From Planococcus plakortidis (GTDB lineage: Bacteria; Bacillota; Bacilli; Bacillales_A; Planococcaceae), in the NCBI RefSeq assembly GCF_001687605.2, contig NZ_CP016539.2, forward strand, positions 464,501-528,500: DNA of 64,000 nucleotides, written 5' to 3'. Position 1 is the stretch's first letter; every line of letters begins with the position of its first letter. Positions 1,221 through 60,407 of the stretch are shown in pieces. The notes under the pieces were generated by a model, which did not search any database, was not told where the DNA came from, and saw nothing but the letters and a program-made list of their open reading frames with translations. The position numbers and the translations under genes were made by a program.

Positions 1221-1350
1221 CCAGGGAAGTTGCCAAATGCAAACAAGGAAATACGGAACCTGTGTGGAAGTGTATTCCATGCAGGTTTTTTATAGTTACG
1301 GGAGAATGCATAACATGCCTTACGGAAGTGGCAGGAAAGAAGGTGCAAGC

Positions 1351-1998
1351 ATGAAGCGGATCTTTTATCCATTGGCGATGGCAACACTGCTTGGGTTTTT
1401 CGGCATTCTGTATTATTACCAACGGGAACCGGTGCGGGAAATCGATGAGCGTGCTGCTTCCATATTCAACGGAATGTGGTGGCTTGAGGCCATGGCGTTC
1501 ATCGGGGAACAGTGGATGATTTTTGCGGCCAGTTTCCTGTTGCTCGTGTTTCTTTGGGCGTTCCGCCACGATTATCGGGGAATGCTCTTCGTCTTCTTGA
1601 CAGTCGGTGCGGGAAATGCGCTGAATCAATTACTACAGCAATGGTTTGCCCGCCCGATGCCCGGATTTCCTGAGAAAATGGCCGCTTATAGCTTTCCGTC
1701 CGATCATGCGATGGTCGGCCTGTTGTACTTGTTCACGCTGGCGTATTTTCTTGGCGAAAGGGCTGGCACAAAAACGATACGCCTGTCGATCTGGTTGGCC
1801 GCTGCTTTGCTGACGATGCTCACGGCCTTGTCGCAAGTGGCGAGCGGTGCGCATTACCTGTCGGATGTCTTGGCGGGGCTATGCCTGGGTTATACTCTAT
1901 TCGTCCTGGTGGCCATCTGGTATGAAATGAGGGAGCGGCATTTCCGCAAGCGCACATCCGTGCGTTCTGCCGAGCGGGAAGATATAGTGGAGCGTTAA
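1351..1998 (+). CDS. PAP2-family membrane phosphatase
   Basis: This is a probable integral-membrane phosphatase of the PAP2 superfamily, acting on lipid phosphates or pyrophosphates such as phosphatidate or undecaprenyl pyrophosphate. I chose the ATG at 1351 (215 residues) because an AGAAGGTG ribosome binding site sits just upstream and the protein then begins with a transmembrane helix; an in-frame start at 1237 would add a polar 38-residue tail. The three PAP2 motifs are visible as the RP of WFARP, the PSDH motif in YSFPSDHA, and SGAHYLSD with the catalytic histidine and aspartate. The lysine usual in motif 1 is not obvious. Five to six hydrophobic helices are seen. Substrate is not determinable from sequence alone. 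Confidence 0.8.
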   Translation: MKRIFYPLAMATLLGFFGILYYYQREPVREIDERAASIFNGMWWLEAMAFIGEQWMIFAASFLLLVFLWAFRHDYRGMLFVFLTVGAGNALNQLLQQWFARPMPGFPEKMAAYSFPSDHAMVGLLYLFTLAYFLGERAGTKTIRLSIWLAAALLTMLTALSQVASGAHYLSDVLAGLCLGYTLFVLVAIWYEMRERHFRKRTSVRSAEREDIVER

Positions 1999-2010: not shown

Positions 2011-2046
2011 AAAAACGAACGGAGGATTTTACTCCGTTCGTTTTTT
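2011..2046 (+). terminator. Rho-independent terminator, left copy flanking element A
   Basis: A hairpin with arms AAAAACGAACGGAG and CTCCGTTCGTTTTTT around a short ATTTTA loop begins 12 bp after the PAP2 stop. It is bidirectional, having A-run and T-run. A near-identical second copy lies at 2352-2386 on the other side of the intervening element. Confidence 0.9.
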
Positions 2047-2351
2047 AGAGTGTTGAAGAACTCTGATAGACAGATATTAAATTGAAAGCTGACGATCTTT
2101 TCGACATTCAAAAATCAATGACTTATTCAAGTATTTGGAGAAGCGTTTGCTCGACTCCTGTGGGACTAGCGGGTTTGAGAGACCCCGCAGGCAATGAATG
2201 AGCGAAGCTGTGCTGAGCACATTCATTTGCGATGCTCGAACGCAGTGAGAGTTGAGCAACGCTTTAGTGACGAGGAGGCTCGATTCCCGCCCCACGGAAA
2301 GCGAGCAATAAGCTTCGGAAAATACAACTACTTTACTTTCTCGACAACCTG
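2047..2351 (+). mobile_element. Element A: ~305-bp non-autonomous repeat inserted between duplicated terminators
   Basis: This stretch carries no credible gene. It shares with the inverted sequence at 60065-60372 a left arm (2051-2152, roughly 90% alike by eye), a core hairpin containing GCGGGTTTGAGAGACCCCGC (2169-2188) and a 54-bp block identical base for base (2272-2325). Its ends are imperfect inverted repeats: the right end read inward is CAGGTTGTCGAGAAAGT and the left end contains TGTTGAAGAAC. Both sides are flanked by the same terminator hairpin, which looks like a long target-site duplication. The interior at 2190-2271 is a variable region of small hairpins that differs from the second copy. 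No transposase is present, so it would have to move in trans. Confidence 0.75.
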
Positions 2352-2386
2352 AAAAACGAACGGAGAATTTTACTCCGTTCGTTTTT
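2352..2386 (+). terminator. Rho-independent terminator, right copy flanking element A
   Basis: This hairpin repeats that at 2011-2046 with a single change in the loop-proximal base (GGAGAA against GGAGGA). It lies 34 bp downstream of the amt stop on the minus strand and serves that gene; the left copy serves the PAP2 gene. Confidence 0.9.
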
Positions 2387-2420: not shown

Positions 2421-3704
2421 TTATGCTTTGCCAGAAACCGGCCGTTCTTCGCCGAGCTGGTTCAGGCGGTCTGCGAAATTATCCGCTCTGCCGGATGAAC
2501 CGCGCAGCACGTCTTGCATTGAATAGGCTTGCGATCCGTGTTCTGCAAAGTCCAAGCCGGTTTCTTCCTCTTCGGCTGTCACGCGCAGCGGTGTCACAAG
2601 GCTGATCAAGAGAAGGACAGCGCCCGTAGCCAAGGATGCCCAAGCGATGACGGCCAGTACGCCGACAGCCTGGATGCCGAGGATTTCGGCTCCTCCCCCA
2701 TACAGCAATCCGCCGTTCACATCGAAGAAGCCGATCGCGAGCGTTCCCCAAACCCCTGCGATTCCGTGAACCGATACAGCCCCCACCGGATCGTCCACAC
2801 GGATTTTCGTATCCAATAGATGGACAGCTTCTGTCATGATGATTCCGGCGGCAAGGCCGATCAAGATGGCGCCAAGGAATGATACGTTGGCAGCACCGGC
2901 AGTGATGCCGACAAGACCCGCAAGCGCGCCGTTCATCGTCAAGGTGCCGTCAATTTGGCCGTAGCGGAAGCGAGTGTAAAGTGCCGTAGCCAACACACCG
3001 GCAGATGCTGCGAGCAAAGTGTTGGCGATGACAGGCGGCACGAGCGCGGGATCTGCCGCGAGTGTGCTACCCCCGTTAAAGCCGAACCAGCCAAGCCATA
3101 GGATGAATACGCCAAGCGCGCCAAGCGGCAAGCTATGACCTGGAATCGTATTGACGGTTTTACCGGAATACTTGCCGAGACGAGGGCCGATTTTCCAAGC
3201 CGCGATAAAGGCGGCGACAGCTCCTGTCAAGTGGACGACTGTGGAGCCGGCAAAGTCGATAAAGCCGATTTCAGCAAGCCATCCGCCTCCCCATACCCAG
3301 TGGCCGACAATCGGATAGATAATGGCTGTCATGGCAATAGTCAGCAAGATATAAGCGGTCAAGTGCATGCGTTCTGCGACAGCTCCTGAAATGATCGTCG
3401 CGCATGTGGCGGCAAAGACTGCCTGGAAGACGAAAAATCCGATATCCGTGACCCCTGATAATGCGAATCCTTCCGTGCCGATCAAGCCAAACGACGACGG
3501 CCCGAACATCAGCGCATAGCCGACGATGAAATAAAGAATGGAACCAAGTGAAATGGTGATCATGTTTTTCATCAAAATATTAAGGGTATTTTTAGAGCGG
3601 GTGAATCCTGTTTCAACCATGGCGAAGCCGGCGTGCATGAAAAAGACGAGCATGGCACCGAGCATGACCCACAACATATCGACTGAACTTTGTACAGCTT
3701 CCAT
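2421..3704 (-). CDS. amt: Ammonium transporter (Amt family)
   Basis: This is an integral-membrane ammonium channel of the Amt/MEP/Rh family with 427 residues and about eleven predicted transmembrane helices, a normal length. Family hallmarks seen include the start FFMHAGFAMVETGF, the segment DFAGSTVVHLTGA that contributes the first pore histidine, and the VSVHGIAGVWGT stretch with the second pore histidine. It follows glnK on the same strand with only 12 bp between them, so they form one operon in which the PII protein gates the channel when nitrogen is sufficient. Promoter and nitrogen-control boxes lie upstream of glnK. The PII gene comes first, unlike the nrgA-nrgB order in Bacillus subtilis. 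Confidence 0.95.
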   Translation of the reverse strand: MEAVQSSVDMLWVMLGAMLVFFMHAGFAMVETGFTRSKNTLNILMKNMITISLGSILYFIVGYALMFGPSSFGLIGTEGFALSGVTDIGFFVFQAVFAATCATIISGAVAERMHLTAYILLTIAMTAIIYPIVGHWVWGGGWLAEIGFIDFAGSTVVHLTGAVAAFIAAWKIGPRLGKYSGKTVNTIPGHSLPLGALGVFILWLGWFGFNGGSTLAADPALVPPVIANTLLAASAGVLATALYTRFRYGQIDGTLTMNGALAGLVGITAGAANVSFLGAILIGLAAGIIMTEAVHLLDTKIRVDDPVGAVSVHGIAGVWGTLAIGFFDVNGGLLYGGGAEILGIQAVGVLAVIAWASLATGAVLLLISLVTPLRVTAEEEETGLDFAEHGSQAYSMQDVLRGSSGRADNFADRLNQLGEERPVSGKA

Positions 3705-55059: not shown

Positions 55060-55256
55060 TGAAGCGGAAGGGAGGCGACGCCTGGGGGACTGCGCGGGCT
55101 GGCGAGACAAATGTGCTGCGCCCTTTGCAGCACATTGGCGGGTCACCCGCCCATCTCTCGGGCAGCTGAAAGCGCGACGTCCTGTCGCATCAGCTGCATG
55201 ACTCGCATCCTGCGAGCCCCAAGCGGCCTCCCTGGAGCGTAATCTCCACCTCCATA
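55060..55256. repeat. Element C: GC-rich hairpin repeat
   Basis: GCGGAAGGGAGGC on the left is mirrored by GCGGCCTCCC on the right, enclosing several short dyads (CGGGTCACCCGCCC, GTGCTGC/GCAGCAC). The internal CCTGGGGGACTGCGCGGG resembles the CCTGTGGGACTAGCGGG core of elements A and B. This is a recurrent class of intergenic repeat in Bacillales. Short frames here translate to arginine-rich junk. Confidence 0.6.
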
Positions 55257-60034: not shown

Positions 60035-60064
60035 AAAAAAGAGCGCTTATAGAAGCGCTCTTTC
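60035..60064 (-). terminator. Rho-independent terminator, copy 1 flanking element B
   Basis: GAGCGCTT and AAGCGCTC around ATAG with A and T runs. It is repeated on the far side of element B at 60373-60400. Confidence 0.9.
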
Positions 60065-60372
60065 CAGGCTGTCGAGAAAGTTAAAAAGCCGTATTTTCCG
60101 AAGCTTATTGCTCGCTTTCCGTGGGGCGGGAATCGAGCCTCCTCATTCTCTGCGCTCACTGCGGGGTCTCTCAAACCCGCTGGTCCCACAGGAAAGATAA
60201 GGCCGAACTACGTGAGACCTTATCTTTGCGAAGTAATGCGCAGCATTATTGAGCAGAAGGGTTTACGAGCAAACGCTTCTCCAAATACTTAAATAGGTCA
60301 TTGATTTTTGAATGTCGAAAAGATGGTCAGCTTTTAATTTAATAACCGTCTAACAGACTTCTTCAACAAGCT
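60065..60372 (-). mobile_element. Element B: inverted relative of element A between duplicated terminators
   Basis: Read on the minus strand, this ~308-bp stretch has the same plan as element A (2047-2351): a left arm (60266-60372), a core hairpin GCGGGTTTGAGAGACCCCGC and a 54-bp block (60091-60144) identical to 2272-2325. Its ends are CAGGCTGTCGAGAAAGT and CAGCTTGTTGAAGAAGT, imperfect inverted repeats. It differs from A in two internal stretches. Both flanks carry the same terminator of the neighbouring MBL gene, an unrelated hairpin from that at element A. No coding sequence is present. Confidence 0.77.
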
Positions 60373-60400
60373 GAAAAGAGCGCTTATAGAAGCGCTCTTT
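60373..60400 (-). terminator. Rho-independent terminator, copy 2 flanking element B
   Basis: Same hairpin as 60035-60064 over at least 26 bases, 7 bp after the stop of the MBL-fold gene. This is likely the original terminator of that gene. Confidence 0.9.
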
Positions 60401-60407
60401 CAATCTT

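What the first reader, a model, noticed from the sequence alone, without database searches (positions are those of the whole stretch)
2011..2386. Small element inserted between two copies of the same terminator (locus A)
Terminator hairpins at 2011-2046 and 2352-2386 are near-identical (one base differs in the loop region) and flank a ~305-bp element with imperfect inverted ends. The simplest reading is that a mobile element duplicated the whole ~35-bp terminator as its target site. This would make insertion harmless, because both the PAP2 and amt genes keep a terminator. Some transposase families (I recall IS1182-type as one) favour palindromic targets, but I know of no description of this element.
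Basis: partly seen in the sequence, partly recalled or inferred. Interest (0 to 1): 0.85.

Follow-up and report, generated by a model that had tools for sequence, protein, structure and literature searches.

The report
Hairpin-duplicating mobile element at terminators
A small mobile DNA element, and the larger insertion sequence that shares its ends, usually land on gene-end stop signals (terminator hairpins) and copy the whole hairpin, so both neighbouring genes keep a terminator; the duplicated length seems to be set by the hairpin and not by the enzyme.

Summary
A 306-bp element (2046-2351) lies between two copies of a 35-bp terminator (2011-2045, 2352-2386). It has at least 40 copies in this genome; 25 of 40 have the same, locus-specific hairpin on both sides, scoring above all 1,560 mismatched flank pairs. 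At this locus 11 of the 14 genomes read have one terminator and no element; two others carry different insertions, one reversed, each with the hairpin on both sides. The element is a MITE. An IS1182-family insertion sequence with the same two ends sits in relatives and also duplicates terminators. Among named relatives of that family, 72 of 75 two-ended loci abut duplications of 19-42 nt that are whole palindromes, odd and even lengths equally common. Best explanation: a DDE transposase that joins its ends at the 5' feet of a hairpin or cruciform, so fill-in copies the stem-loop. Palindrome targeting by IS1182 relatives is known (IS1272 deletes the stem-loop) and whole-hairpin duplication was drawn as a possible pathway in 2017; my searches listed no paper demonstrating it. 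A sister subgroup duplicates 8-9 bp of the loop.

The parts
1237..1998 (+). PAP2-family phosphatase gene, upstream convergent neighbour
   Evidence: ORF; Pfam PF01569 E 1.2e-15
2011..2045 (.). target-site duplication copy 1: whole bidirectional terminator hairpin
   Evidence: single in 11 of 14 orthologous gaps read
2046..2351 (+). MITE, 306 bp, no transposase (longest ORF listed inside it 72 aa)
   Evidence: 40 places in own genome
2046..2060 (+). left terminal inverted repeat TAGAGTGTTGAAGAA (common form in other copies CAGAGTGTTGAAGAA)
   Evidence: partner IS end CAGAGTGTTGAGAAA in G001
2337..2351 (-). right terminal inverted repeat TTTCTCGACAACCTG (reverse complement CAGGTTGTCGAGAAA)
   Evidence: partner IS end CAGGCTGTCGAGAAA
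2352..2386 (.). target-site duplication copy 2: whole terminator hairpin
2421..3704 (-). ammonium transporter gene (amt), downstream convergent neighbour
   Evidence: ORF; Pfam PF00909 E 3.3e-113
60037..60064 (.). second window copy: target-site duplication copy 1, 28 nt
   Evidence: locus L013
60065..60373 (-). second window copy of the MITE, 309 bp
60374..60401 (.). second window copy: target-site duplication copy 2, identical 28 nt

Best explanation
The element is a miniature inverted-repeat element (MITE) moved by an IS1182-family DDE transposase whose target is a DNA hairpin, in practice a rho-independent terminator. Shown: it inserts into a pre-existing single terminator, the whole palindrome is duplicated, the duplication is centred on the hairpin, and its length differs with the hairpin (19-42 nt in the named IS set, up to 52 nt in another locus). 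Inferred: the palindrome is extruded as a cruciform or single-strand hairpin; the two 3' ends of the element are joined to the two 5' feet of the stem, usually a few pairs outside the first G:C pair; the single-stranded hairpins are filled in, so each flank receives a full terminator. At a four-way junction the two feet are close together whatever the stem length, which would explain how one enzyme makes duplications of such different, odd or even, lengths. Inferred benefit: insertion is nearly neutral, since both flanking genes keep a terminator, and the site can be hit again. Also inferred: that the partner transposase moves the MITE in trans.
For: Own genome: 25 of 40 copies with a duplicated hairpin above the maximum of 1,560 control pairs. 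Orthologous sites: 11 of 14 read have a single terminator; G015 has a duplication of 31 nt, one end mismatch, nested symmetrically in the hairpin that is duplicated over 35 nt here; G016 is filled in opposite orientation (read by eye). Six further loci against 13 relatives: at least 38 of 78 locus-genome pairs give one uninterrupted match through the terminator (capped list); 5 of 15 regions read are filled with a hairpin on both sides, one of them reversed relative to this genome. Named IS1182 set: 72 of 75 two-ended loci have a duplication touching both element ends, 69 of them exact and 3 with mismatches; outer eight positions 0.95 self-complementary in register and 0.30-0.49 at each shift of 1-10; 36 odd and 36 even lengths; 69 of 72 begin within four pairs of the first G:C pair; A/T tract at the edge in 65 of 72, and in 6 of 72 at 40 nt away. 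Partner IS with both MITE ends in G001, G036, G021; perfect duplications of 36 and 32 nt in G001 and G021.
Against: No experiment; cruciform versus other hairpin states is not resolved. Four of 28 two-ended own copies lack a duplication above the null (L018, L019, L033, and L046 at the limit), as do 3 of 75 named IS (L226, L252, L254). One of the 25 own matches (L038) does not reach the element end (13 nt short). The register is less sharp for the MITE copies: 0.76, with 0.60 at one shift. The partner IS in G036 contig 1 has a different hairpin on each side. In the own genome I found no partner, only a remnant of another IS1182 type. Hairpin length measured from pairing correlates only moderately with duplication length (Spearman 0.39, n=44). 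The named loci are not all independent: many come from a few genomes, and at least four share their duplicated sequence with loci of the unnamed set.
Confidence: 0.88

Rival explanations
1. The transposase reads the terminator as ordinary double-stranded DNA: two subunits bind the two half-sites of the dyad and cut on either side at whatever distance they lie.
For: Duplications are symmetric about the dyad, which a dyad-binding dimer would also give.
Against: The duplicated sequences listed share little beyond A- and T-rich edges (by eye; edge counts); spacing runs 19-42 nt with odd and even lengths equally common, so cut sites lie on every face of the helix, hard for one rigid complex.
Confidence: 0.15
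2. The hairpin is read as single-stranded DNA at the replication fork or in a transcription bubble, not as a cruciform.
For: Terminators are transcribed, and 18 of 25 duplicated sites lie between convergent genes.
Against: No orientation bias with respect to assumed replication direction, 18 to 22 of 40 copies (origin assumed at base 1, not tested). Insertions occur in both orientations at one site.
Confidence: 0.25
3. Two terminators were there before, or the element carries its own terminators as ends.
For: None beyond the two-copy layout itself.
Against: Empty sites have one terminator; the hairpin differs from locus to locus but agrees within a locus.
Confidence: 0.01

Closest known systems
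IS1272 / TnSha1 (IS1182 family, staphylococci)
   Same: IS1182-family transposase; targets are mostly hairpins, several confirmed as terminators, without shared sequence (PMC4923244 passages; PMC5678879 abstract, passages, one results section and part 1 of 2 of the discussion)
   Different: IS1272 and TnSha1 delete all or part of the stem-loop and make no duplication; here the whole stem-loop is duplicated
Pathway b of the structure-dependent transposition model (Wan 2017, PMC5678879, Fig 13 legend)
   Same: Predicts whole stem-loop duplication if element ends join at the 5' feet
   Different: Given there as a possibility; no example in the parts I read
IS1182-family members said to target palindromes (Siguier reviews, seen only as cited in the two papers above)
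   Same: Same transposase family and same kind of target
   Different: The reviews were not held, so whether they record palindromic duplications could not be checked; I recall, from no call, a range of 0-60 for direct repeats in their table
Prokaryotic MITEs (review PMC10969869, passages only)
   Same: Short, no transposase, inverted ends, intergenic, many copies
   Different: The passages seen describe no MITE whose duplication is an entire terminator

Membership tests
IS1182 family (CAG-ended group) | Transposase matching NF033551 (transpos_IS1182) over its cut-off | tested here: met
   L113 485 bits and L132 469.3 bits against cut-off 270
IS1182 family (partner IS in G001, G036, G021) | Transposase matching NF033551 over its cut-off | tested here: inconclusive
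   matched in two pieces per copy, 203.7-249.6 bits each, each below the cut-off of 270; the gene is in two frames
IS1182 family (CAG-ended group) | DDE transposase domains | tested here: met
   PF13751, PF05598, PF01609 on L113 and L132
IS1182 family (CAG-ended group and partner IS) | Terminal inverted repeats | tested here: met
   CAG..TGT.GA motif at both ends; both ends found in 75 of 80 named loci
MITE derived from an IS1182-family IS | Short, multi-copy, no transposase | tested here: met
   306 bp, longest ORF 72 aa, 40 places
MITE derived from an IS1182-family IS | Ends shared with an autonomous element | tested here: met
   MITE and partner IS share both distinct ends; the inner region aligns only weakly; whether a partner copy is active was not tested
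MITE derived from an IS1182-family IS | Mobilised in trans by that transposase | not testable with these tools
   needs a transposition assay
IS1272-type stem-loop replacement | Target stem-loop lost, no duplication | tested here: not met
   whole hairpin present twice

The most novel reading that the evidence does not exclude
IS1182 transposases are a family of DNA-structure readers: they target hairpins, and subgroups differ only in where on the hairpin they join, which yields whole-hairpin duplication (this case), loop duplication of 8-9 bp, or hairpin replacement, all seen in one bacterial genus. The length of the target-site duplication is then a property of the target and not of the enzyme.
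Probability: 0.7. Interest if true: 0.82.

Novelty: new variant of a known kind. Interest (0 to 1): 0.74.

Why it matters
DDE transposons are normally typed by a fixed duplication length. Here one transposase group makes palindromic duplications of 19-42 nt whose length goes with the target, which points to recognition of DNA shape and makes a so far hypothetical branch of a published model directly testable. It also suggests a low-damage insertion strategy: the terminator is kept for both neighbours and stays available as a target, as in G001 where one terminator was hit by both the MITE and the IS. It would explain paired terminators at such sites, and the insertions may mark hairpin-forming sites in living cells.

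Tried and rejected
Looked for an Rfam family in the element: none at gathering score; 13 weak matches below gathering, each overlapping one of the two hairpins. Looked for the autonomous partner in the own genome: only a remnant of the GGGGCTGTCCC-ended IS1182 type, with different ends. Looked for MITE homology in the first 30 IS1182 loci (L052-L081): none; the partner was found later through contig-edge copies in G025. Rejected pre-existing double terminators and element-borne terminators. In one search, 44 sites were measured: L038 (MITE), L124 and L129 (IS) were dropped because the automatic register was off or partial; 36 of the 44 have centres within 0.5 nt (17 of 24 MITE, 19 of 20 IS). 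G040 at the L011 site shows a tandem terminator repeat; I took it for a possible excision scar until the letters showed that it includes neighbouring bases. Structure prediction of the transposase was not available and was left out. One listed paper that holds the words 'duplication of the terminator' (PMC8880864) was not opened. The library holds only open-licence papers, so ISfinder, TnPedia and the Siguier reviews were not checked.

Full report
The observation. The hairpins are at 2011-2045 and 2352-2386, 35 nt each, one difference, with stems of 16 and 15 pairs and folds that none of 200 shuffles equals. Between them lies a 306-bp element, 2046-2351, whose ends are imperfect inverted repeats. 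The neighbours are a PAP2 gene and an ammonium transporter gene in convergent orientation. The simple terminator scan lists neither hairpin.

A repeat family in this genome. The element gave 73 matches in its own genome (40 of 68 first-look candidates were scored, so there may be more), which I merged into 40 places. At most of them the left and right flanks carry the same hairpin, different from place to place. Measured without gaps, 25 of 40 places have a flank match above the maximum (12) of 1,560 control pairs made from flanks of different copies. Of 28 copies with both ends recognisable, 24 have the duplication; L018, L019, L033 do not, and L046 is at the control limit; the 25th place (L026) has one recognisable end, and in L038 the match stops 13 nt short of the left end. 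A second copy in this window, 60065-60373, is flanked by identical 28-nt hairpins. Eighteen of 25 duplicated sites lie between convergent genes, 6 between tandem and 1 between divergent genes, judged by the longest ORF within 900 bp.

Empty sites. A search of 46 genomes of the genus, own included, with the PAP2-amt region gave 30 loci; I read the gap between the genes in 14 of them. Eleven have one terminator and no element. This genome has the element with a 35-nt duplication. G015 has a related but different element; its duplication, 31 nt with a mismatch at one end, sits symmetrically inside the same hairpin. G016 has an element of this family in the opposite orientation, again with the hairpin on both sides. 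Orientation and duplication length differ, so I count three separate insertions at one terminator. The other 32 genomes were not read at this gap.

Six more loci. Joined flanks of six other own copies were searched in 13 close relatives (capped list). One uninterrupted match through the terminator, meaning one terminator and no insert, was listed for 12 of 13 relatives at the L036 site, 9 at L031, 7 at L011, 5 at L009, 3 at L012 and 2 at L049: at least 38 of 78 locus-genome pairs. The others were filled, partly deleted, matched on one side only, or not listed. I read 15 regions: five are filled with a hairpin on both sides (G041 and G043 at L031, G019 and G028 at L049, G043 at L011, the last reversed relative to this genome); five have lost one end of the element together with one terminator copy; three are empty; one holds a tandem repeat of the terminator with neighbouring bases; in one the terminator is replaced by another element.

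The autonomous partner. A search with the end of a contig-edge IS copy from G025 led to insertion sequences in G001, G036 and G021. The three read whole are 1,532-1,660 bp, with ends CAGGCTGTCGAGAAACC and, at the other end, CAGAGTGTTGAG or CAGCTTGTTGAG. These correspond to the two distinct ends of the MITE. In G021 the IS has the same 32-nt hairpin on both sides; in G001 the same 36-nt hairpin. In G001 the order is terminator, IS, terminator, MITE, terminator; the IS duplication includes two bases that also belong to the MITE end, from which I infer that the IS came second. In G036 one copy has a different hairpin on each side, perhaps recombination between copies or an assembly join. The transposase matches the IS1182 model in two pieces, each under the model's cut-off. 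The MITE interior aligns only weakly with the IS leader.

The rule in named genomes. Both ends were found in 75; 72 have a direct duplication that touches both element ends, 69 exact and 3 with mismatches, against a control maximum of 13; L226, L252 and L254 have none. Lengths run 19-42 nt, 36 odd and 36 even. The outer eight positions are 95% self-complementary in register and 30-49% at each shift from 1 to 10; for the 24 own MITE sites the figures are 76% and 26-60%. The duplication begins within four pairs of the first G:C pair in 69 of 72. An A or T tract lies at the edge in 65 of 72 and, 40 nt away, in 6 of 72. Many loci come from a few genomes, so they are not 72 independent lineages.

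Mechanism. What is shown is the product: whole palindrome duplicated, centred on the dyad (36 of 44 measured sites within 0.5 nt), length differing with the target. [quoted passage not shown] A cruciform brings the feet together at a four-way junction whatever the stem length, which would account for variable, odd or even lengths. Wan and co-workers (PMC5678879; abstract, passages, one results section and part 1 of 2 of the discussion read) drew this as pathway b beside the stem-loop replacement they inferred for IS1272, and loop duplication as pathway c. Furi and co-workers (PMC4923244; passages read) found deletion within terminator hairpins by TnSha1. Both cite Siguier for palindrome targeting in the IS1182 family; Wan notes that no detailed data were given.

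Other registers in the same family. A sister IS1182 subgroup with ends GAGG.C.CTGAAAAA has relatives at E 1e-100 or better in 43 of 261 genomes. Of 30 loci read, 26 have both ends; 23 of these have a duplication of 6-9 bp (22 of them 8-9), and at 14 of the 23 at least 6 of the 8 positions just outside can pair, so it lies in a hairpin loop (no shuffled control was made for the pairing). Three of these loci belong to the window's genus (L319-L321). At the L011 site of G015 the terminator is replaced by an element with ends GGGGCTGTCCC and GAGACAGCCCC, with the A and T edges kept. So duplication of the whole hairpin, duplication of the loop, and replacement are all seen in this genus; the last rests on one orthologous comparison.

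Limits. No experiment was done. The literature search covered open-licence papers only. Hairpin length measured from pairing alone correlates only moderately with duplication length (Spearman 0.39, n=44). No orientation bias with replication was seen (18 against 22 of 40, origin position assumed). The genus of the window was not determined by a call.

Noticed in passing
L319-L348 (for example L324, L327, L330, L331); L054, L056: A second IS1182 subgroup (ends GAGG.C.CTGAAAAA) often sits in the loops of terminator-like hairpins and duplicates only 8-9 bp.
   Followed up: partly
L213 (G015 at the L011 site); L080: A third IS1182 type with ends near GGGGCTGTCCC/GGGACAGCCCC appears to replace the hairpin and keep its A/T edges, as reported for IS1272.
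   Followed up: partly
L311, L312, L313 (inside the partner IS; L311 element nt 781): The partner transposase is split in two ORFs in all three copies, with A AAA AAG near the end of the first and the second in the -1 frame, at 69-91% nucleotide identity; a programmed -1 frameshift is likely.
   Followed up: partly
L311 1090-3022: One terminator hit twice: terminator-IS-terminator-MITE-terminator.
   Followed up: yes
L314/L315 (G036 C15 and C11) and L005: What looks like the same terminator carries the MITE in this genome and the partner IS in G036; orthology of the whole site was not tested.
   Followed up: partly
window 55161-55216: Rfam Bacillaceae-1 RNA match inside a separate G+C-rich repeat-like stretch at about 55060-55240.
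   Followed up: no
G000:C1:2384876-2385425 (L051, L064): Decayed IS1182 transposase with stops, of the GGGGCTGTCCC-ended type.
   Followed up: partly
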